Shown: positions 23,759-61,707 of the stretch, piece by piece
Position numbering within the stretch: position 1 is the stretch's first letter
Layout of the letters: every line of letters starts with the position of its first letter
DNA from: Actinomycetota bacterium
Lineage (GTDB): Bacteria > Actinomycetota > Acidimicrobiia > Acidimicrobiales > Ilumatobacteraceae
Assembly: GCA_009702045.1 (NCBI GenBank)
Contig: WLIV01000007.1
Location: 62,001-126,000, forward strand
Direction: 5' to 3'
Length of the DNA: 64,000 bases
Notes under the pieces: generated by a model
The model's database searches: none
What the model was told of the DNA's origin: nothing
What the model saw: only the letters and a program-made list of their open reading frames with translations
Translations under genes and position numbers: made by a program

Positions 23759-23780
23759 CCCACCCTGGTCCCGCCGTCGG

Positions 23781-23852
23781 TTTCTGGGAAGCACTCTTCC
23801 CAATCTCGTTTCTGGGAAGGCCCAGTCCCGCTTTGCGGGACTGGGCCTTCCC
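23781..23852 (-). repeat. Palindromic repeat A, copy 1 (left flank of DUF559 gene 1, reverse orientation)
   Basis: The element has two hairpins. The large one is a perfect 18-base stem, 23814-23831 with 23835-23852, around a TTT loop (arms begin GGGAAGGCCCAGTCCCGC). The small one pairs TGGGAAG (23785-23791) with CTTCCCA (23796-23802). TTTCTGGGAAG occurs directly at 23781 and again at 23810. Read on the minus strand, the order (large hairpin, AGAAACGAGATTGGGAAG, CTTCCCAGAAACCG) matches copy 2 at 24838-24915 and copy 3 at 36953-37030. It could also terminate the ABC operon. Confidence 0.85.
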
Positions 23853-23902
23853 ATTTCGAGTGCATCTGCCGGATCGCCGATGGCGCCGTACCCAGTTCGG
23901 GC

Positions 23903-24829
23903 GTGGATCTTCGGAAACTCGCCCCATTCGCCGACCGCCACCACGGGCTCACGCGCCGCAGCGATGCGGCCAGGCTCGGGGTGAGCAAGTCTGCGTGGTA
24001 TCGCGCAGTCGACAGCGGCCTGTTGGAACCGCTCTACCCCAACATCGCCCGACTCCCCGGTGCACCGGCAACGCTTCACCAGCGGGCGCTCGCGGCGGTG
24101 TGGGCGGTGGGTGTCGGCGCGCTGGCATCCCATCGGACCTCTGCCGCGTTGTGGGGTGTCGTGCGTCCGGACGACGATCCGATCGAGGTGCTGATCGGTT
24201 CCCGTGAGCGGTGCGTGTGGGTTCCGGACGTGGTGGTGCACCGCCCTCGCGACTTGGTGGACCTGCGACCGATCGATCGTGGGAGGGTGCCGACGACGAT
24301 GCCGATACGCATGCTGCTCGACCTCGGGGCTGTCGATCCAGACGCCGTGCTGCCGGCCGCGCTCGACCTCCTGTCGCGCCGGGTCGTGTCACCGGCCGGG
24401 CTGCGGTCCGGTCTGATGCGCCACGCCCGCCGCGGACGTAACGGTGTCACCGCCTTTCGATCGGTGCTCGATCAACTCGGCGACGATCGGTCCCCGGCAG
24501 ACACTGTGCTGGAGACGGAAATGGCAGCACTGTTGCGGAAGCATCGACTTCCCCCCGCCACATTCCATCCCGTGGTCATTGGGTACGAGGTCGATTTCCG
24601 GATCGACGAGTCGATCATTGTGCTCGAGTGCGACGGATGGGAGTCGCACGGCCTGAACCGTGATCAGTTCGAGTTCGACCGCATTCGCGAAGCCGAACTC
24701 ACAGCGGCGGGCTTCATCGTCGTGCACTTCACGTGGAGTCGCGTCCTGCATGCGCCACACAGTGTTGCCCAGCAGATCCGGGCAGTGGTGCAGCGGTGGG
24801 CGCCGCACTTGGTCGCCGACCGTGAATGA
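23903..24829 (+). CDS. AbiEi-like wHTH + DUF559 (Vsr-like) endonuclease-domain protein, copy 1
   Basis: The 308-residue protein has an N-terminal AbiEi-type winged helix (about 12-50, GLTRRSDAARLGVSKSAWYRAV), a middle region with SHRTSAALWGV, and a C-terminal DUF559 domain (about 200-290). The PD-(D/E)xK-like residues are Glu204/206, Asp231 (YEVDF), Glu242 and Asp244 in VLECDGWESH, then Asp259-Arg260 and Gly270. The nuclease core therefore looks intact. The GTG at 23903 is the only early start. The gene is bracketed by inverted copies of repeat A at 23781-23852 and 24838-24915, with the stop only 8 bases from the right copy. Its role is unknown: these proteins are numerous in actinobacteria and are often called toxin-antitoxin or endonuclease proteins without proof. 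Confidence 0.85.
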   Translation: MDLRKLAPFADRHHGLTRRSDAARLGVSKSAWYRAVDSGLLEPLYPNIARLPGAPATLHQRALAAVWAVGVGALASHRTSAALWGVVRPDDDPIEVLIGSRERCVWVPDVVVHRPRDLVDLRPIDRGRVPTTMPIRMLLDLGAVDPDAVLPAALDLLSRRVVSPAGLRSGLMRHARRGRNGVTAFRSVLDQLGDDRSPADTVLETEMAALLRKHRLPPATFHPVVIGYEVDFRIDESIIVLECDGWESHGLNRDQFEFDRIREAELTAAGFIVVHFTWSRVLHAPHSVAQQIRAVVQRWAPHLVADRE

Positions 24830-24837
24830 GCCGTTCA

Positions 24838-24915
24838 TGGGAAGGTCTGGTCCCGGTTTCCGGGACCAGACCTTCCCAGATGGCGATTTGGGACGGATCC
24901 TTCCCAGAAGCCGGG
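24838..24915 (+). repeat. Palindromic repeat A, copy 2 (right flank of DUF559 gene 1)
   Basis: The large hairpin is a perfect 19-base stem, 24838-24856 with 24860-24878, around a TTT loop (left arm TGGGAAGGTCTGGTCCCGG). A distal part reads TTTGGGACGGATCCTTCCC and then AGAAGCCGGG (24887-24915). Against copy 1 the paired stem bases differ on both arms in a compensating way (CCCAGTCCCGC versus TCTGGTCCCGG), so pairing is conserved rather than sequence. The orientation is opposite to copy 1, with both large hairpins facing the DUF559 gene. Confidence 0.85.
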
Positions 24916-24919
24916 CGGG

Positions 24920-33241: not shown

Positions 33242-35827
33242 TCACTCTGTGGGTGCGGGTGTGGGTGCGGGAGCCGGCGGTTCCGTGGCGTCTGCCGCAG
33301 CGGCGGCTGCGAGTTCGACCACGGCCGGGGGTTGGAAGCCCTCGACAGCGGTGAACTTCAGCTTCTTGTCGCCGGGGCGCTCGGGGTCGTCCTCGGTGTC
33401 GACGACGATGATTTCGCCCGCGTGGAACTCCTTGTACAGGATCTTCTCGCTGAGCACGTCTTCGATCATCCGCTGGATTGCACGACGCAGCGGGCGTGCG
33501 CCCAACTGCGGGTCGTAACCCTTTTCCGCCAGCAGTTCCTTGGCCGGCTGTGTGAGCTCGATGCCCAGACCCTGGCCTTCCAGTTGACCGGTGAGGCGCT
33601 TGGTCATCAGATCGACCATTTGCATGACCTCGTCGCGGGCGAGTTCATGGAAGACGATGATCTCGTCCACGCGGTTGAGGAACTCGGGACGGAAGTGGCC
33701 CTTCAGCGCTTCGGTGACCTTGTCCTTCATCCGCTCGTAGCTCATCGCCGCGTCGGCCTTGGTGAAACCAACGTTGGCCTTGCGCAGATCGCTGCTGCCG
33801 AGGTTGCTGGTCATGATCAGCACCGTGTTACGGAAGTCGACGGTGCGGCCCTGGCTGTCGGTGAGACGGCCTTCCTCCAGAATTTGGAGCAACGTGTTGA
33901 ACACGTCGGGGTGCGCCTTTTCGATCTCGTCGAACAGCACGACGCTGAACGGCTTGCGGCGCACGGCCTCGGTGAGCTGGCCGCCCTCTTCGTAGCCGAC
34001 GTAGCCGGGGGGCGAACCCACGAGGCGGCTGACCGTGTGCTTCTCCTGGTACTCGGACATGTCGAGCGAGATGAGCGACTGCTCGTCGCCGAACAGGAAC
34101 TCGGCAAGCGTCTTGGCCAACTCGGTCTTGCCGACGCCGGTGGGGCCGAGGAAGATGAACGAGCCGCTGGGGCGCTTGGGGTCCTTGAGGCCCGCACGGG
34201 TGCGGCGCACGCTCTGGCTGACGGCTCGGATGGCGTTCTCCTGGCCGATCATCCGCTTGTGCAGCTGACCTTCCATGTTGAGCAGCTTGGCGGTCTCTTC
34301 CTCGGTGAGCTTGAACACCGGAATACCGGTCCAGAGGCTGAGCACCTCGGCGATCGCTTCTTCGTCCACCTCGTCGAACAGGTCGACACCGCTGGCCTTG
34401 ATCTCGATCTCCTTGGCGGCCTTCTCCTCGAGCAGGCTCTTCTCCTGGTCGCGCAGACGGCCGGCTTCCTCGAAACGCTGTTCCTCGACGGCGCGCTTCT
34501 TGGCTTCCTGCACCTCGATCAGTTTGGTGTCGAGTTCCTTCAGATCCGGGGGAGTGGCCATGCGCTTGATGCGCAGACGGCTGCCCGCCTCGTCGATGAG
34601 GTCGATCGCTTTGTCGGGGAGGTGACGGTCGCTGATGTACCGGTCGGCCAGGTTGGCTGCGGCCACGATCGCCTGATCGGTGATCGTGACACGGTGGTGC
34701 GCCTCGTACTTCTCGCGCACACCCTTGAGGATCTCGATGGTGTGGGCCAGCGTGGGCTCTTCCACCTTCACCGGCTGGAAGCGACGCTCGAGTGCGGCGT
34801 CCTTCTCGAGGTGCTTGCGGTACTCGTCGAGCGTGGTGGCACCGATGGTCTGCAGCTCGCCGCGGGCGAGCATCGGCTTGAGGATGCTCGCCGCGTCGAT
34901 GGCACCTTCGGCTGCGCCAGCACCCACGAGCGTGTGGATCTCGTCGATGAACAGGATGATGTCGCCGCGTGTGCGAATCTCCTTGAGCACCTTCTTGAGG
35001 CGCTCTTCGAAGTCGCCGCGATAACGGCTGCCGGCGACGAGGGCACCGAGGTCGAGCGTGTACAGCTGCTTGTTGCGCAGCGTGTCGGGCACGTCGTTGG
35101 CGACGATCTTCTGAGCGAGACCCTCGACGATCGCGGTCTTGCCAACGCCCGGTTCGCCAATGAGCACCGGGTTGTTCTTGGTGCGGCGGCTGAGGATCTG
35201 CATCACTCGTTCCATCTCACGGGAACGACCGATCACCGGGTCGAGCTTCTTCTCGCGAGCGAGCTGAGTGAGGTTGCGGCCGAACTGGTCGAGGATCTGG
35301 CTGTTGCCTTTGTCGCTGGCATCTTCCTTCGGTGCACCGGCAGCAGCGGCGGCACCGGGTGCAGGCTCGCCGCCCTTGCCCTGGCCACCCTGGTAACCGG
35401 ACAACAGCTGGATGACCTGCTGGCGCACGCGGCTGAGATCGGCGCCCAGCTTGACGAGCACCTGGGCGGCGACGCCTTCACCCTCGCGAATGAGGCCGAG
35501 CAGGATGTGCTCGGTGCCGATGTAGTTGTGGCCCAACTGCAGTGCTTCGCGCAGTGACAGCTCGAGCACCTTCTTGGCGCGCGGCGTGAACGGGATGTGG
35601 CCCGACGGGGACGAGCCGCCCTGACCGATGATCTCTTCGACCTGGCTGCGCACGGCCTCCAGGGAGATTCCCAGCGATTCCATCGCCTTGGCAGCGACGC
35701 CTTCGCCTTCGTGAATGAGGCCGAGCAGGATGTGCTCGGTTCCGATGTAGCTGTGGTTGAGCAGGCGAGCTTCTTCCTGCGCCAGCACAACCACCCGACG
35801 AGCCCGATCGGTGAAGCGTTCAAACAT
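33242..35827 (-). CDS. clpC: ATP-dependent Clp protease ATPase subunit ClpC
   Basis: The 861-residue protein starts [20 protein letters not shown] and has the double Clp-N repeat (about 1-145), AAA domain 1 with GEPGVGKT, a UVR/M-domain region (about 415-460), AAA domain 2 with GPTGVGKT, and a C-terminal D2-small domain. This is a class I HSP100 unfoldase that feeds ClpP, essential in most actinobacteria. The last 35 residues are Ala/Pro-rich. The ATG at 35827 is fixed by the conserved N-terminus and by TACACT 6 bases upstream (leaderless). It is divergent from the prenyl synthase, with 87 bases between starts. Confidence 0.97.
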
Positions 35828-36895: not shown

Positions 36896-36952
36896 CCGCC
36901 CCGAGTGACGAGCTCCGCCGAATCGTGACAGCTGCCTTCGCGAAACTCGACC

Positions 36953-37030
36953 TGGGAAGCCTCAGTCTCGCTTTGCGGGACTGATCCTGCCCAGAAGCCG
37001 GTGTGGGAATGATCCTTCCCAGAAGCCGGA
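36953..37030 (+). repeat. Palindromic repeat A, copy 3 (orphan, degenerate)
   Basis: The copy starts with an imperfect 19-base stem, 36953-36971 with 36975-36993, around TTT (left arm TGGGAAGCCTCAGTCTCGC), carrying three mismatches and one G-T pair. Then follow AGAAGCCGGTGTGGGAATGA and TCCTTCCCAGAAGCCGG up to 37030, directly touching the stop codon of the next (minus-strand) gene. Its order matches copies 1 and 2. No DUF559 gene is near, so this is a solitary copy, probably reused as a terminator between convergent genes. Confidence 0.8.
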
Positions 37031-56621: not shown

Positions 56622-58156
56622 TCGAGTTCCCGATTCTCACGATGCTGGTGCTCGTGCCGGTAATTGGCTCGGTGCTGGTGGCGCTCATCTCCAAGCGTTA
56701 CCCGGATCTGGTGAAGGTGACGGCCCTCGTCACCAGCGTGCTCACCGCCGGCATGTCGATCTGGCTACTGGCCGCGTTCAAGACGAACAATGCCGACTTC
56801 CAGTTCGCCTCGCAGCACGAATGGATCAAGGCCTGGGGTATTTCCTGGCACCTCGGTGTCGATGGCATCTCGATCTTCCTCGTGGTGCTCACCGGCGTGC
56901 TGTTCCCGTTGGTCATTGTCGGCATCGACCCGCATCACGACCACAAGCGCTACCTGTCATGGATGCTGCTGCTCGAAGCAGGCGTCATGGGGTCGTTCAT
57001 CAGCCTCGACCTGTTCTTGTTCTTCGTGTTCTTCGAGATCGTCCTCGTGCCGATGTACTTCCTCATCGGCGGGTGGGGTTACGACAACCGCGTCTACGCG
57101 GCCACGAAGTTCTTCCTGTTCACGATGATCGGTTCGGCGTTCATGCTCGTGGGCATCATCGCCACGGCAGTGCTGGCCAAGGCCGACAACGGACACGTCA
57201 CGTTCGACCTGATCAAGATCGCCGAGAACGCATCGTTCGCTGCCAGTACTGGCAGGTGGCTGTTCTTTGCCTTCGCCATCGCCTTCGCGGTGAAGGTGCC
57301 GTTGTTCCCGCTGCACACGTGGTTGCCCGATGCCCACACGCAGGCGCCCACCGGCGGTTCGGTGATCCTCGCCGGTGTGTTGCTGAAGATGGGTACGTAC
57401 GGGCTGTTGCGCTTCGGTGTCTTCCTGTTCCCCGAGGCCGCAGTGTGGGCTCGCCCGTTGTTCCTCACGCTGGCCGTGGCCGGCATCATCTGGGGCGCGA
57501 TCGCCGCCACGATGCAAACCGACTTGAAGCGACTCGTCGCTTACTCCTCGGTGGCCCACCTCGGATTTATCGTCCTCGGTACGTTCGCGCTCACCGCCAC
57601 AGCGATCACCGGCGGAGTCATGCAGATGGTGAACCACGGCATCAGCACCGGCGCGCTGTTCATCCTCGTCGGCATGATCTACGACCGCCGCCACACCCGC
57701 GAGATCTCCAAGCTCAGGGGTTTGCAGAAGGTCGCCCCGATCTTCGCTGCGGTCTTCACCGTGGTGATGCTGTCCAGCATCGGTGTCCCCGGCCTCAACG
57801 GTTTCGTCGGCGAGTTCATGGTGCTCATCGGCTCGTTCGGCACTGCCAGGTGGTGGGTGGTCGTCGCGACCACCGGCGTCATCCTGGCGGCGTTGTATCT
57901 GCTGTGGGCGTACCAGCGTGTCTTCCACGGCGAACCCGACGAGGACAACAAGTCGTTCGCCGAACTGAAGTGGAAGGAGGGCATGCTGCTGCTGCCCTTC
58001 ATCGGCCTCATCGTGTTCTGTGGTCTGTACCCCAAGCCGATGATCGACCGCATCCAGCCCTCGGTCGACAAACTGCTCCAGCACGTCTCGCAGCACAGCG
58101 ATTTCAAGGTCCCGGCCCCCGCTGAGCCGGTCATTTCCAACGGGGGAGAGGGCTGA
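56618..58156 (+). CDS. nuoM: NADH-quinone oxidoreductase subunit M
   Basis: The 512-residue protein is a Mrp-antiporter-like subunit with FFEIVLVPMYFLIGGWG, KVPLFPLHTWLPDAHTQAP and AYSSVAHLGFI blocks, which hold the Glu and Lys of the proton path. Fourteen helices are expected. It starts with GTG 56618, overlapping nuoL by 4 bases, and overlaps nuoN by one. Confidence 0.96.
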   Translation: MIEFPILTMLVLVPVIGSVLVALISKRYPDLVKVTALVTSVLTAGMSIWLLAAFKTNNADFQFASQHEWIKAWGISWHLGVDGISIFLVVLTGVLFPLVIVGIDPHHDHKRYLSWMLLLEAGVMGSFISLDLFLFFVFFEIVLVPMYFLIGGWGYDNRVYAATKFFLFTMIGSAFMLVGIIATAVLAKADNGHVTFDLIKIAENASFAASTGRWLFFAFAIAFAVKVPLFPLHTWLPDAHTQAPTGGSVILAGVLLKMGTYGLLRFGVFLFPEAAVWARPLFLTLAVAGIIWGAIAATMQTDLKRLVAYSSVAHLGFIVLGTFALTATAITGGVMQMVNHGISTGALFILVGMIYDRRHTREISKLRGLQKVAPIFAAVFTVVMLSSIGVPGLNGFVGEFMVLIGSFGTARWWVVVATTGVILAALYLLWAYQRVFHGEPDEDNKSFAELKWKEGMLLLPFIGLIVFCGLYPKPMIDRIQPSVDKLLQHVSQHSDFKVPAPAEPVISNGGEG

Positions 58157-59667
58157 TGGGCGCGTTGCTCGCCGCCGACACACTGCACGGACCCAAGGTT
58201 GATTGGTTCGCGCTCACGCCGCTCATCATCCTGCTCGGCGGCGCCATGGTGCTGTTGCTGGTCGCCGCCCTCACACCGGCATGGCCGAAGCGCGCGTACG
58301 CGCTGTTCACGGTGGCCGTTGGTTCAGCGGCCGCAGTGATGTCATTCATCCTCTGGGATCGCATCAACCATCAGGGCGCCAAGACGCTCGTCGGCGACGC
58401 AATGTGGCTCGACAAGCCCGGTGTGTGGATCGCGATCACGGTCTGCATCGGCGTGGTCATGGCTGCGTTGCTCACCGACGACTACCTCCGTCGGGAGGGC
58501 ATCGACGGCCCCGAGTTATACGTGTTGTACCTGCTGGCCGCGCTTGGTGCGATCGTCATGGCCTCGGCCAACGACCTGATCGTGCTGTTCCTCGGGCTGG
58601 AGATCCTCTCGCTGGCCTTGTACGTGATGGCCGCCAGCCATCGCAAGCGTGCTGACAGCCAGGAGAGCGGTCTCAAGTACTTCATCCTCGGTGGCTTCTC
58701 CTCGGCGTTCCTGTTGTACGGCATTGCGCTGATCTATGGCTCGTCCGGCAGCACCAACCTCGGAAAGATCGAGAGCTACTTCCGTTTGAACCCGATCCTC
58801 GACCACAGCAAGGAGACGCTGGCGCTCGCCGGCGTTGCACTACTGATCGTCGGACTTGCGTTCAAGGTCGCCGCTGTGCCGTTCCACTTCTGGTCGCCCG
58901 ATGTGTACGAGGGTGCCCCCACGCCGGTCACCGCGTTCATGGCATCGGTCGGCAAAGCCGCCGCCTTCGCAGCAATGCTGCGAGTGTTGCTGCAGGGTCT
59001 GCCGCACTGGGCGCAGGACTATCGCCCCGCCATCTGGACGATCGCTGTACTCACACTCGTCGGCGGTTCAGTGATGGCTGTCGTGCAGACGAACGTGAAG
59101 CGCATGCTGGCGTTCTCCTCCATCAGCCACGCCGGTTACCTGCTGGTCGGTGTTGAGGCCGCAGCGCACAACGCGGGCAACGGGCTCAGCAGCACGGGCG
59201 TCTCGTCGGTGCTGATGTACCTCCTCGTCTACACAGTGCTCGTCGGCGGCACCTTCGCTGTCGTCACCGCCGTTGGTCGCACCGGCGACGGCGCCACGGA
59301 TCTGGCCGGTTTCCGAGGGCTCGGTCGTAGCAAGCCTGCGCTGGCGCTCGGGATGACGGTACTGCTACTGGCCCAGGCAGGTGTACCACTCACGAGTGGC
59401 TTCGTCGCCAAGTTTGGTGTCATCGGCGACGCAGTGAGGGTGCACAGCTACGCCATCGCGATCATCGCCATGGTCTCGGCCGTGATCGCTGCGTTCCTGT
59501 ACCTGCGGATCATGATCAGCATGTGGATCGCCGAGCCCGAGGCCGGCGACGACGCCCGCGAGGCCGTGCGCGTCCCGGCGCTGCTCTGTGTCGCCATCAC
59601 CCTTTCGGTGGGCTTCACCCTGGCCATCGGGTTCTTCCCCGACTGGCTGATCCACGCCGCCCCCTGA
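58156..59667 (+). CDS. nuoN: NADH-quinone oxidoreductase subunit N
   Basis: The 503-residue protein has the third antiporter-like core with FLGLEILSLALYVMAA, FKVAAVPFHFWSPDVYEGAPTPVTAFMA and FSSISHAGYLLVG. It is the last gene of the complex I operon, and its stop is followed by 41 bases before the repeat array at 59709. No classical terminator with a T-run is seen; the B repeats may serve that role. Confidence 0.96.
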   Translation: MGALLAADTLHGPKVDWFALTPLIILLGGAMVLLLVAALTPAWPKRAYALFTVAVGSAAAVMSFILWDRINHQGAKTLVGDAMWLDKPGVWIAITVCIGVVMAALLTDDYLRREGIDGPELYVLYLLAALGAIVMASANDLIVLFLGLEILSLALYVMAASHRKRADSQESGLKYFILGGFSSAFLLYGIALIYGSSGSTNLGKIESYFRLNPILDHSKETLALAGVALLIVGLAFKVAAVPFHFWSPDVYEGAPTPVTAFMASVGKAAAFAAMLRVLLQGLPHWAQDYRPAIWTIAVLTLVGGSVMAVVQTNVKRMLAFSSISHAGYLLVGVEAAAHNAGNGLSSTGVSSVLMYLLVYTVLVGGTFAVVTAVGRTGDGATDLAGFRGLGRSKPALALGMTVLLLAQAGVPLTSGFVAKFGVIGDAVRVHSYAIAIIAMVSAVIAAFLYLRIMISMWIAEPEAGDDAREAVRVPALLCVAITLSVGFTLAIGFFPDWLIHAAP

Positions 59668-59708: not shown

Positions 59709-59756
59709 TCGGGCGCGATTCGTGTCGGGCGCGATTCGTGTCGGGCGCGATTCGTG
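59709..59756 (+). repeat. Three perfect tandem copies of a 16-bp unit (B flank, left)
   Basis: TCGGGCGCGATTCGTG occurs three times head to tail at 59709-59724, 59725-59740 and 59741-59756. The core GGGCGCGATTCGTG recurs in inverted orientation at 60908-60921 and 60959-60972 on the far side of the DUF559 gene, and with one change at 60843-60856. Perfect tandem identity suggests recent expansion. Confidence 0.9.
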
Positions 59757-59766
59757 TCGGCGGTGA

Positions 59767-59821
59767 CCGGCCCAGCTCCCACGGGCGCGGTTCTGCGACA
59801 CCAGCGCGCAGAACCGCGCCC
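59767..59821 (+). repeat. Left B element: 18-bp inverted repeat and 15-bp hairpin
   Basis: CCGGCCCAGCTCCCACGG (59767-59784) is the exact reverse complement of 60880-60897. It runs into a perfect hairpin, GGGCGCGGTTCTGCG (59783-59797) with CGCAGAACCGCGCCC (59807-59821) around a 9-base loop, located 15 bases from the DUF559 stop codon. The hairpin could also terminate nuoN and the DUF559 gene. Confidence 0.88.
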
Positions 59822-59836
59822 ATAGAACCGGGCTGA

Positions 59837-60769
59837 TCATGCGGCCTGGTGCTGGCGATGCTGAAGGATGTCGGCGACGTCTCGGATGGCTTCGTCGAGC
59901 GGACCCTCCACGTCGAGGCGAGCGACTCGGGCGACGGCCCAACCGGTGGCGGTGGCCTTGCGATCACGCCAGGCGTCGTTCCTGCGGTTGTCGGCGCCGT
60001 CATGCCAGGTGGGATCGTCGACTTCGAGGGCGACCTTCCACTCCGGCCAACCGAAGTCGGCATGAATCGTGCGACCCGACGGGAGTTGGATGGCGCACTG
60101 GGTAACGGGCGTCGGCAGGCCCTGGCGTTCGATGGCCTCCAACACCAACTGCTCGAGATGCGACTGCAGCGCAGCGCCCCACATCGGCCTCGATGCGAGA
60201 ACTGCCGCCATGGTGCGTGTACCGGGGCGGTTCGGGTGGGCAAGGCGGCGGTACGTGTCCACCAGCGTCGGGAGGCTGCACATGCGTTCGTGGAGGATCT
60301 GCTCCATCACCGACCGTGCCACCGAGAGGCCGAGCATGTCGGCGCTGTCGAACAGTGTGCGCGGTGGGCTGGTCAGCCGAATCCCGTCCGCCCGTTCGAC
60401 GATGTCTACTGGGTCGATCCTCCGACACCGGTGCACCACGATGCCATCCAACTCGGGGCTGCACCCGTGCGGCACGAGTAGGTGCAGCCCCTTCGTACCT
60501 ACCTTTCGATAGCCCCACAGCCCACCGGCCGTAGTGAAGCCGATCATCGCGAAGGGATTCCTGGCACACGCAGCGACCATCTTCTGCTCAGGACCCAACG
60601 GCCATTGAGCGGACAGAAACACTCCCGGAAGGAGTGTGTACAGCTCCTCTCGCTCGACCATTCGATACACGGTGCGAGCGGAGCAGCCGAGCAACTGCAG
60701 GTGCGGTGAGCTGATGACCCCGTGGTGCGTACGAAACCACTCGTCGAGTGGGTTCCTCCATATGGGCAT
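59837..60769 (-). CDS. AbiEi-like wHTH + DUF559 (Vsr-like) endonuclease-domain protein, copy 2
   Basis: The 310-residue protein has an N-terminal winged-helix segment (about 14-48, GVISSPHLQLLGCSARTVYRMV), a middle AbiEi-like domain with GFTTAGGLWGYR and SPPRTLFDSADML, and a C-terminal DUF559 domain. Nuclease-core residues are Glu206/211, Asp238 (HADFGW), Glu249 and Asp251 in ALEVDDPTWHDG, then Asp265-x-x-Arg268. It is about the same length and design as the 23903-24829 product, but diverged. The ATG at 60769 is set by GGAGGAAGG upstream. Inverted B repeats bracket it. Function unproven. Confidence 0.85.
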   Translation of the reverse strand: MPIWRNPLDEWFRTHHGVISSPHLQLLGCSARTVYRMVEREELYTLLPGVFLSAQWPLGPEQKMVAACARNPFAMIGFTTAGGLWGYRKVGTKGLHLLVPHGCSPELDGIVVHRCRRIDPVDIVERADGIRLTSPPRTLFDSADMLGLSVARSVMEQILHERMCSLPTLVDTYRRLAHPNRPGTRTMAAVLASRPMWGAALQSHLEQLVLEAIERQGLPTPVTQCAIQLPSGRTIHADFGWPEWKVALEVDDPTWHDGADNRRNDAWRDRKATATGWAVARVARLDVEGPLDEAIRDVADILQHRQHQAA

Positions 60770-60842
60770 GACCTTCCTCCTGGCTGGAGCGACAGCATGG
60801 GGGAAGTACCGCGCACCATATCGACCGCGCCGCAATTCCAAC

Positions 60843-60972
60843 GGGCGCGCTTCGTGCCAGGTGCGGCATGGTTCCGCACCCGTGGGAGCTGGGCCGGACA
60901 GCAGCGACACGAATCGCGCCCAAGCTGGAGTGGGGCGAGTTGGGGCTGCCAGGAACGACACGAATCGCGCCC
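60843..60972 (-). repeat. Right B element: nested inverted repeats
   Basis: GGGCGCGCTTCGTG (60843-60856) can pair with CACGAATCGCGCCC (60908-60921), 13 of 14 positions, enclosing a hairpin GGTGCGG/CCGCACC (60860-60866 with 60874-60880) and the 18-bp inverted repeat CCGTGGGAGCTGGGCCGG (60880-60897) that matches the left side exactly. CGACACGAATCGCGCCC occurs twice, at 60905-60921 and 60956-60972. The gap between DUF559 and the amidotransferase gene (60770-61014) is thus almost entirely repeat. Confidence 0.88.
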
Positions 60973-61014
60973 AACCTGGGGGGCGGGGGTGGCCGGGGTG
61001 GGCTCGCCGGGGGG

Positions 61015-61707
61015 TCAGGTGTGGCGAATGAGGGCGTCGAACAGGGCTTGTTGTTGGGGGTCGTCGGCAGCGTCGTCCTCGGGGTGCCACTGGGTGCCCA
61101 CGATCCACGACGCCGCGTCGAACTCGCACGCGTGAACGATGCCGTCAGCGGTGCTGCCGACGACAGTGAGTGCGTCGGCAACCCTGTCGAGTGCCTGATG
61201 GTGCACGCAGTGGCATCGGCGCGGCGACGCGCTGCCGACAGCGACCGCCAGACGCGAACCCGGTGTGAGCGCCACCTCGTGGTGCGCGAACCAGTGCGAC
61301 TCGGTGCCGATGTCCTGCTGCAGCGTGCCACCGAGCGCCACGTTGAGCACTTGCAGCCCGCGGCAGACGGCCAACACCGGCATGTCGCGCTCGACGGCAG
61401 CGTGGACCACGGCAATCTCCACCTCGTCGTGTTCGGCGACGATGCCGTAGAGCTGATCGGCCGTGGGTTGCTGGCCGTAGCGCCGAGGGTCGACGTCGCC
61501 GCCGCCGTGCAGGACCACCGCGTCGACACGACCGAGCAGTGCCGACATCTCTGCCGCCAATGAAGTGATCGGTGGCAGCATCAGCGGCACCCCGCCGGCA
61601 CGAGCCACGGCTTCGAAATAGCGGCGGCCGACAGCAAACGGCTCTCCGCGCACACCCTTGGCCTCAGCGGACAACCGGCCGACGATCAGCACCAACGGGG
61701 CGGCCAT
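61015..61707 (-). CDS. Class I glutamine amidotransferase, PuuD-like (gamma-Glu-GABA hydrolase family), copy 1
   Basis: The 230-residue protein has the peptidase C26 layout: GGGDVDPRRYG near 68-78, nucleophile Cys115 in AVCRGLQVLN and the late QWHPED with the catalytic His and Glu. PuuD-type enzymes release GABA or other amines from gamma-glutamyl conjugates. The 61712-62434 neighbour is a clear paralogue (GGGDVDPTRYG, LCRGMQVLNVALGGT), 4 bases away on the same strand. The substrate may differ between the two. Confidence 0.9.
   Translation of the reverse strand: MAAPLVLIVGRLSAEAKGVRGEPFAVGRRYFEAVARAGGVPLMLPPITSLAAEMSALLGRVDAVVLHGGGDVDPRRYGQQPTADQLYGIVAEHDEVEIAVVHAAVERDMPVLAVCRGLQVLNVALGGTLQQDIGTESHWFAHHEVALTPGSRLAVAVGSASPRRCHCVHHQALDRVADALTVVGSTADGIVHACEFDAASWIVGTQWHPEDDAADDPQQQALFDALIRHT

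What the first reader, a model, noticed from the sequence alone, without database searches (positions are those of the whole stretch)
59709..60972. Second DUF559/AbiEi gene bracketed by a different inverted-repeat family (unit B)
Around the gene at 59837-60769 an 18-bp sequence is repeated exactly in inverted orientation (59767-59784 and 60880-60897), together with a GGGCGCGATTCGTG core that occurs in direct copies on the left and inverted copies on the right. The architecture matches unit A but the repeat sequence does not, as if each DUF559 lineage carries its own cognate repeat. Two independent cases in 64 kb make chance unlikely. A selfish or repeat-maintaining gene-repeat module that includes an endonuclease-fold protein would, to my knowledge, be undescribed.
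Basis: partly seen in the sequence, partly recalled or inferred. Interest (0 to 1): 0.88.

Follow-up and report, generated by a model that had tools for sequence, protein, structure and literature searches.

The report
Nuclease gene with matching DNA repeats
A bacterial gene for a predicted DNA-binding and DNA-cutting protein sits between two copies of a short hairpin repeat that is also scattered through the genome, and many related genes sit between different repeats of their own, which suggests a new kind of gene-and-repeat partnership.

Summary
Gene B (59837-60769, minus strand) lies between two complete copies of a 79-bp imperfect palindrome in opposite orientation (59743-59821, 60843-60921). 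The repeat is scattered at 15 further well-matched sites in the sequence examined.

All seven full-length AbiEi-DUF559 genes found in this genome are bracketed, each by a different dispersed repeat. In relatives, 72 of 106 such genes have matching flanks, against 0 of 432 mismatched flank pairs and 1 of 166 control genes. Phylum-wide it is 29 of 48. Similar proteins at unrelated sites carry similar repeats.

The predicted structure is an AbiEi fold joined to a homing-endonuclease (EDxHD/Vsr) nuclease with conserved catalytic residues. The organisation matches RAYT/REP 'REPtrons', but the RAYT family (PF01797) was not found in any of 31 genomes.

Best reading: a cognate gene-repeat module that works like a REPtron with an unrelated enzyme. 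The nuclease probably cuts at its repeat, and repair spreads and homogenises copies. The pairing is well supported; cutting and spreading are inferred. Against recent movement, 7 of 7 testable dispersed sites of four other families are shared with the nearest relative.

The parts
59711..59742 (+). two extra tandem copies (16-bp period) of the terminal motif GGGCGCGATTCGTG, left of the left element
59743..59821 (+). left 79-bp palindromic element of family B, complete
   Evidence: (DNA fold z -3.7)
59837..60769 (-). gene B, 310 aa, AbiEi fold plus DUF559/EDxHD-type nuclease
   Evidence: Pfam AbiEi_4 just above its cut-off; MTES_1575 and DUF559 below theirs; structure model pLDDT 87.8
60599..60760 (-). 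winged helix-turn-helix part of gene B (residues 4-57), less conserved than the rest
60185..60763 (-). AbiEi-antitoxin-like fold (residues 3-195)
   Evidence: 6y8q Z 12.3, rmsd 4.3, 185 aligned; PADLOC AbiEi 5e-18
59849..60163 (-). nuclease domain (residues 203-307), like homing endonuclease I-Bth0305I and Vsr
   Evidence: 3r3p Z 13.2, rmsd 2.2, 96 aligned; 1cw0 Z 10.6; catalytic residues conserved
60843..60921 (-). right 79-bp element of family B, complete, opposite orientation to the left one
   Evidence: (DNA fold z -3.5)
60937..60986 (-). partial extra copy of the element end, with the terminal motif at 60959-60972
23770..23854 (+). left element of family A (companion unit)
   Evidence: z -9.4
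23903..24829 (+). gene A, 308 aa, AbiEi_4 plus DUF559
24832..24919 (-). right element of family A, aligns best to the left one in inverted orientation
   Evidence: z -6.3
36952..37029 (.). dispersed, gene-free copy of family A

Best explanation
Each AbiEi-DUF559 gene and the palindromic repeat that brackets it are a cognate pair: a single-copy gene plus a dispersed family of gene-free repeats, organised like a RAYT/REP 'REPtron' but with an unrelated enzyme. SHOWN by sequence: bracketing; a different repeat for each of the seven own-genome genes; dispersal in the gene's own genome (and, where looked for, its close relative) but not in two distant genomes; similar repeats beside similar proteins at unrelated sites; conserved nuclease residues; a predicted DNA-reading region that diverges faster than the rest; one sharp block of divergence covering gene plus repeats. 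INFERRED: the AbiEi winged helix reads the motif repeated inside the element (GGGCGCG in family B), and two protomers sit on the two arms. The EDxHD/Vsr-type nuclease then nicks or cuts at the element. Repair copies another element (gene conversion, template switching or strand transfer), which spreads and homogenises copies and multiplies end motifs. The gene between two elements rides along and is occasionally exchanged, inverted or lost.
For: Bracketing: 72/106 genes against 0/432 mismatched same-genome pairs, 1/166 control ORFs of the own genome and 6/920 random placements. Phylum: 29/48 against 1/2256. The 7 own-genome full-length genes are bracketed by distinct repeats, in two cases (C6, C1) overlapping the gene's end. 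Dispersal in 400-kb samples: G000 families 21 sites in G000 and 0 in two other genomes; G020 families 7 in G020 and 0 in the others. Cognacy: non-syntenic pairs at >=55% protein identity, mean repeat score 14.8, permutation maximum 10.2, 0 of 2000. GGGCGCG core in both flanks in 9/10 B-clade loci against 10/142 others. The repeat form scattered in G006 is the form that brackets G006's B orthologue. Nuclease: fold; E, D, E, H, D kept in 149 to 162 of 162 proteins. Winged-helix core (20-47) 46% identical against 64% in the other two regions, 183 close pairs. Block divergence of gene plus repeats at the C6 locus. No Y1 transposase match in 31 of 31 genomes.
Against: No recent movement seen: 7 of 7 testable dispersed sites of four other families lie inside unbroken alignments with the nearest relative G009, and the B sites that could be placed in G009 are shared. 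No target-site duplication found. Many homologues lack a detectable bracketing repeat: 20 of 106 to 34 of 106 in relatives, 19 to 27 of 48 phylum-wide. Their nuclease residues are nearly as well kept (all five in 24 of 31 low-scoring loci against 101 of 114 bracketed ones). Dispersal is weak in G068 (1 site in 400 kb from five families). The score cut-off of 20 was chosen after seeing the data; at 15 the counts are 80/106 against 22/432. AbiEi-family proteins are known to bind inverted repeats as operators, so binding without cutting would explain part of the data.
Confidence: 0.55

Rival explanations
1. Regulator and operators: the AbiEi part binds the palindromes as operators of itself and of a scattered regulon; the nuclease part has another job, for example defence, and does not act on the repeats.
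For: AbiEi and Rv2827c bind inverted repeats at their own promoters (PMC7319586, abstract). The elements hold several copies of a short motif in both orientations. Purifying selection on the genes.
Against: An operator is not needed downstream of the gene, yet both sides are bracketed. Unit B itself lies between convergent genes, and two dispersed B sites (L040, L041) lie between convergent called ORFs. Element ends are iterated up to six times. The one AbiEi-only gene found in the genome has no flanking repeat. No sigma-70-like promoter was found around gene B, a scan that does not cover other promoter types.
Confidence: 0.2
2. Classical transposon with MITEs: the bracketing repeats are terminal repeats of a mobile element, the DUF559 protein is its transposase, and the dispersed repeats are internally deleted copies.
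For: Inverted orientation of the two copies, dispersal of short gene-free copies, no gene at this locus in G005 and G007 and an inverted unit in G004, and TnsA-like similarity of the nuclease fold (1f1z Z 6.5).
Against: One gene per repeat family: among the seven own-genome proteins the closest pair (C1 and C30) is 60% identical and carries different repeats, all other pairs are 20-32%. Each bracketing B copy is the full palindrome, not a half. The unit sits beside the same gene in several species of the genus. No target duplication seen. No transposase domain in the Pfam matches of proteins A or B.
Confidence: 0.12
3. Passenger: the repeats are spread by an unrelated machinery and AbiEi-DUF559 genes merely land or survive beside them.
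For: Most repeat copies are not beside such a gene. The spreading mechanism is not shown.
Against: It does not explain why each gene lineage has its own repeat, why both flanks match, why control genes do not show it (1/166), or why similar proteins at unrelated sites carry similar repeats.
Confidence: 0.08
4. The palindromes are ordinary transcription terminators or known RNA elements.
For: Strong hairpin potential and largely intergenic location.
Against: No terminator-like site in the unit. No Rfam family at gathering score in three sources, and none close to it in the unit. Sequence differs between genomes while the pairing with the gene persists.
Confidence: 0.03

Closest known systems
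RAYT/TnpA-REP and REP/REPIN ('REPtron')
   Same: gene bracketed by a palindromic repeat that is also dispersed; enzyme and repeat co-evolve (PMC8266576 abstract; PMC3733652 passages)
   Different: no Y1/HUH transposase match in the protein or in any of 31 genomes; a Vsr/EDxHD-type nuclease fused to an AbiEi fold instead; elements 48-107 bp in the own genome, without GTAG tags (read by eye)
EDxHD homing endonuclease I-Bth0305I (and Vsr)
   Same: nuclease domain fold, Z 13.2 over 96 residues; residues in the order E-D-E-H-D conserved; I-Bth0305I is described as dimerising on a target of nearly 60 bp (PMC3943268 passages)
   Different: AbiEi-fold DNA-binding part; gene not seen in an intron; associated with a dispersed repeat instead of one conserved target site
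AbiEi antitoxin of type IV toxin-antitoxin systems
   Same: residues 3-195 match the S. agalactiae AbiEi fold, and Rv2827c; PADLOC AbiEi 5e-18
   Different: nuclease fused at the C terminus; no AbiEii family among 14 nearby proteins scanned
DUF559 Vsr-like proteins, e.g. Caulobacter VsrA
   Same: DUF559 domain of the Vsr/PD-(D/E)XK group, linked to DNA damage in vivo (PMC12907096 passages)
   Different: VsrA is tied to a cytosine methyltransferase in that paper; no repeat association in the passages seen

Membership tests
RAYT/REP (REPtron) | Y1 (HUH) tyrosine transposase, PF01797 | tested here: not met
   not among the Pfam matches of proteins A and B; no match in 31 of 31 genomes (23 of them at least 90% complete and clean), while the control search finds it in 5 of 14 known genomes
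RAYT/REP (REPtron) | gene bracketed by copies of a palindromic repeat | tested here: met
RAYT/REP (REPtron) | the same repeat dispersed between genes of the same genome | tested here: met
   (weak in G068)
RAYT/REP (REPtron) | GTAG (or CGTC) tag at the repeat end | tested here: not met
   no GTAG in the seven own-genome elements printed (read by eye); CGTC not examined systematically
RAYT/REP (REPtron) | enzyme cuts and rejoins its cognate repeat | not testable with these tools
   needs biochemistry
EDxHD homing endonuclease | I-Bth0305I/Vsr-type catalytic fold | tested here: met
   Z 13.2, rmsd 2.2, on a predicted model
EDxHD homing endonuclease | catalytic E, D, H, D residues | tested here: inconclusive
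   conserved in 149 to 162 of 162 proteins, but not superposed residue by residue on the solved enzyme
EDxHD homing endonuclease | cleaves an allele lacking its gene and is copied into it | not testable with these tools
   filled and empty sites exist but cutting cannot be tested
Type IV toxin-antitoxin (AbiE) | AbiEi antitoxin fold | tested here: met
Type IV toxin-antitoxin (AbiE) | adjacent AbiEii (DUF1814) toxin gene | tested here: not met
   for unit B: neighbours are NADH-quinone oxidoreductase and Peptidase_C26/GATase. For the seven own units together 14 nearby proteins were scanned, 13 with other families and 1 with none; not every one is the immediate neighbour, and the right neighbour of unit A was not scanned (one search failed)
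Insertion sequence with MITEs | several near-identical gene-bearing copies per genome | tested here: not met
   own genome: seven full-length genes, closest pair 60% identical, all others 20-32%
Insertion sequence with MITEs | target-site duplication | tested here: inconclusive
   no clean filled/empty pair close enough

The most novel reading that the evidence does not exclude
AbiEi-EDxHD nucleases are a new, RAYT-independent class of repeat-spreading enzymes in Actinomycetota. Each one recognises its own hairpin repeat, cuts there, and so disperses and homogenises that repeat through the genome. Enzyme and repeat co-diverge, and the gene-plus-repeat block can be exchanged as a cassette.
Probability: 0.45. 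Interest if true: 0.93.

Novelty: categorically new. Interest (0 to 1): 0.87.

Why it matters
As far as the papers seen here go, REP-type gene-repeat pairs are tied to one enzyme superfamily (HUH transposases). Here the same organisation appears with an unrelated nuclease, in genomes where no such transposase was found. If the enzyme acts on its repeat, this would explain families of intergenic palindromes in Actinomycetota, turn DUF559/AbiEi proteins from 'antitoxin-like, unknown' into enzymes with predictable DNA targets, and give many natural enzyme-target pairs for studying how DNA specificity evolves. The pairing makes the likely target of a protein readable from its own flanks, so the hypothesis can be tested at once.

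Tried and rejected
Shared concerted site between G000 and G006: blastn put the element of G006 locus L296 beside a homologue of the gene at G000 L036. On inspection the element is upstream of the gene in G000 and downstream in G006, so it is not one site and the claim was dropped. No shared dispersed site between G000 and G006 was found among the nine G006 stretches fetched.

Insertion polymorphism between G000 and G009: none among 7 testable sites of families A, C45a, C45b and C30. Two more fell in alignment breaks. Two indels checked in L177 were not elements. One difference exists at a B site: G000 L040 has a second element and about 285 bp that G009 L287 lacks. Five G000 B sites (L036, L037, L044, L045, L171) and one G009 B site (L282 near 980) were not placed in the other genome.

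Integron attC sites were considered because some B copies read GTTGGGC...GCCCAAC. The order is the reverse of attC, other families lack it, and no Rfam match was found; the attC order is recalled, not tested. CRISPR was not pursued and not tested.

Gene-dependence of repeats: G005 and G007, which lack the gene at the B locus, have no hits of either pattern, but neither do G001, G002 and G003, which keep it, so this says nothing.

A broad named search with A1 failed for lack of conserved stretches; a B-clade alignment was used instead.

Weakness of the flank test: letting flanks reach 60 bp into the gene raises self matches to 86/106 but also mismatched ones to 11/432.

Full report
WHAT IS THERE. 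The window belongs to a 3.65-Mb genome in 56 contigs. The named relatives found are MAGs labelled Acidimicrobiaceae, Ilumatobacteraceae, Acidimicrobiia or broader Actinomycetota. Gene B (59837-60769, minus strand, 310 aa) lies between nuoN (58156-59667) and a Peptidase_C26/GATase gene (61015-61707). It is the asymmetric core of a 79-bp imperfect palindrome that is complete on each side (59743-59821 and 60843-60921), in opposite orientation, with further end motifs at 59711, 59727 and 60959. Both copies fold far better than shuffles (z -3.7 and -3.5, 0 of 200 shuffles as good).

THE REPEAT IS A DISPERSED FAMILY. The exact 14-mer GGGCGCGATTCGTG occurs 27 times in the genome and 0 times reversed. 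The hits form clusters beside unrelated genes. Many are the same 79-bp unit with a 65-bp start-to-start spacing of its ends; one has six end motifs at 16-bp period. By a simple ORF caller, 10 of 15 dispersed B sites overlap no called ORF; the five overlaps were not resolved further.

EVERY OWN-GENOME COUSIN HAS ITS OWN REPEAT. A profile of seven own-genome proteins (A1; the others 22-32% identical to B) finds those seven full-length genes, one AbiEi-only gene, and a partial match inside a 1371-aa frame. All seven are bracketed, and the seven repeats differ; in C6 and C1 the repeat overlaps the gene's end, so these two pass only when flanks reach 60 bp into the gene. In 644 kb of the genome each repeat has further copies, at a loose cut-off and counting the bracketing ones: B 20 sites (reversed control 4), A 10 (0), C45a 8 (2), C45b 8 (1), C30 7 (1), C6 4 (0), C1 4 (2). 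The B count is enriched because stretches around B hits were fetched on purpose. At a strict cut-off in a 400-kb sample chosen without regard to hits, the seven families give 21 sites in G000, with 0 in equal samples of two other genomes and 0 in reversed controls. Eight families of G020 give 7 sites in G020 and 0 in the others (1 in a reversed control). Five families of G068 give 1 in G068 and 0 in the others.

CONTROLS. The own genome and 30 relatives hold 187 matches to A1 (27 of 31 genomes; summed from its table). I examined 115 loci, mostly the best-scoring; 106 have 350 bp on both sides. Left and right flanks match (score above 20) in 72 of 106, against 0 of 432 pairs of flanks from different such genes of the same genome, 1 of 166 control ORFs of the own genome (a local duplication) and 6 of 920 random placements. 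The cut-off was chosen after seeing the data; at 15 it is 80 of 106 against 22 of 432. Letting flanks reach 60 bp into the gene gives 86 of 106 against 11 of 432. Across the phylum 52 of 149 genomes have matches. Of 49 chosen loci, 48 had both flanks (30 genomes): 29 match against 1 of 2256 mismatched pairs with the 60 bp, 21 against 1 without. Elements are hairpins: median fold z -4.0 for 115 elements against -0.2 for 114 control segments. The AbiEi-only gene, which lacks the nuclease, has no flanking repeat (score 9; one case).

PAIRING OF PROTEIN AND REPEAT. At protein identity of 70% or more, 8 of 14 pairs share a repeat (score above 20); below 45% it is 1 of 3346. Some of that is shared location. 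Restricted to pairs with unrelated surroundings and at least 55% identity (58 pairs, 50 loci), the mean repeat score is 14.8; the largest of 2000 permutations is 10.2. Relatedness among these loci is not modelled. The core GGGCGCG is in both flanks of 9 of 10 B-clade loci and 10 of 142 others. G006 carries a B homologue beside the same amidotransferase gene, bracketed by a changed form (GGACCCACGGGTCCG). That form occurs 15 times in G006, 3 in G004, once in G008 (control also 1) and 0 times in the 12 other genomes. The G000 form occurs 27 times in G000, 19 in G009, 4 in G004, 2 in G006 and 0 times in 11 others. So the scattered copies follow the form at the gene. Identity alone does not fix the repeat: the own-genome proteins C1 and C30 are 60% identical and carry different repeats, and orthologues at one locus can differ in repeat.

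THE PROTEIN. The model (pLDDT 87.8, 15 sequences) has an AbiEi-antitoxin fold at 3-195 (6y8q, Z 12.3, rmsd 4.3, 185 aligned) and a nuclease at 203-307 nearest to homing endonuclease I-Bth0305I (3r3p, Z 13.2, rmsd 2.2, 96 aligned) and Vsr (1cw0, Z 10.6). In 162 aligned proteins E206 is kept in 159, D238 in 162, E249 in 157, H256 in 149 and D265 in 154. In 183 pairs at 55-90% identity the winged-helix core (20-47) is 46% identical and the middle and nuclease regions 64% each: the predicted DNA-reading part changes fastest. Four G000/G009 orthologue pairs have dN/dS 0.03-0.15, so the proteins are maintained.

DYNAMICS. At the C6 locus G000 and G009 have 85-99 identical columns per 100 outside. 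A block of about 1.2 kb, the gene with its bracketing repeats, drops to 51-79, with unlike repeats; dS there is 1.4 against 0.06-0.18 at four other loci. I read this as exchange of gene and repeats as one block. At the B locus G005 and G007 have no gene, with nuoN and the amidotransferase about 84 and 157 bp apart and other palindromes between; G004 has the unit inverted. G009 has only the end of the left element. In one B array shared by G000 and G009, 4 of 6 units read ATTCGTG in G000 and 5 of 6 read ATTCATG in G009, a sign of local homogenisation. Against recent movement, 7 of 7 testable dispersed sites of four other families lie in unbroken alignments of matching length with G009, and the B sites that could be placed are shared (eight by alignment, one more by reading). 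Family A has matches on 29 further G009 contigs.

MECHANISM. The organisation is that of a REPtron: enzyme gene, bracketing palindromes, dispersed gene-free palindromes, enzyme-specific repeat. RAYT enzymes are HUH transposases (PMC8266576, abstract). PF01797 has no match in 31 of 31 genomes here, with the control ringing in 5 of 14. I therefore propose that the AbiEi part binds the motif repeated in the element and the EDxHD/Vsr-type nuclease cuts there, with repair copying elements. I-Bth0305I is described as dimerising on a target of nearly 60 bp (PMC3943268, passages), which suits a palindrome of this size. Binding of inverted repeats by AbiEi-family proteins is known (PMC7319586, abstract). 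Binding, cutting and copying by the present proteins are not shown.

LITERATURE. Searches for DUF559 with palindromic, RAYT, AbiEi and endonuclease, for RAYT/REPIN/nuclease, for MTES_1575, for AbiEi with inverted repeats, for EDxHD with homing endonuclease, for REP with Vsr, and for palindromic repeats with Mycobacterium and RAYT listed no paper that, from title and start of abstract, reports this association. The library is open-access only, so other papers could be missed. Papers seen: PMC8266576 and PMC7319586 (outline with abstract); PMC3733652, PMC12907096, PMC3710099 and PMC3943268 (passages); the rest in search listings only.

VERDICT. Observation confirmed and extended from two units to a pattern found across the phylum sample. 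Gene-repeat pairing: very likely (about 0.95). Nuclease acting on its repeat: about 0.5. I call it categorically new because the closest system fails on its defining enzyme; its organisation converges on a known one, and a stricter reader could call it a new variant.

Noticed in passing
L283 (G009 contig C203), 8121-8492: An ORF that reads like eukaryotic ubiquitin (begins MHIFVRTLAGKIITF, ends in a possible membrane anchor; translated). The resemblance to ubiquitin is recalled, not searched.
   Followed up: partly
L189 and L191 (G007, G005), between the amidotransferase and nuoN genes: The empty B sites hold other palindromes (GAGTGGAAGA...TCTTCCACTC; TGCGCGATC...AAATCGCGCA), perhaps further repeat families.
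   Followed up: no
L056, 1486-2073: An AbiEi-only gene followed by an ORF that looks like a nucleotidyltransferase toxin (by eye): a probable ordinary type IV toxin-antitoxin pair in the same genome, without flanking repeats.
   Followed up: partly
L057 (G000 C35:2640-2894): DUF559-like nuclease match inside a 1371-aa open frame, possibly the giant MTES_1575-type protein described in PMC3710099.
   Followed up: no
L167, 6171-7391 and surroundings: Local duplication with rearrangement relative to G009 (flank score 163), the only control gene with matching flanks.
   Followed up: partly
B-clade winged helix, residue 37: Tryptophan at this position in L063 and L065, the two loci whose repeats contain GGGTCCG, and methionine or leucine in the eight others of alignment A2; too few cases to test.
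   Followed up: no
window 35445-35795: Direct repeat of 126 bp, 75% identical, spacing 225.
   Followed up: no
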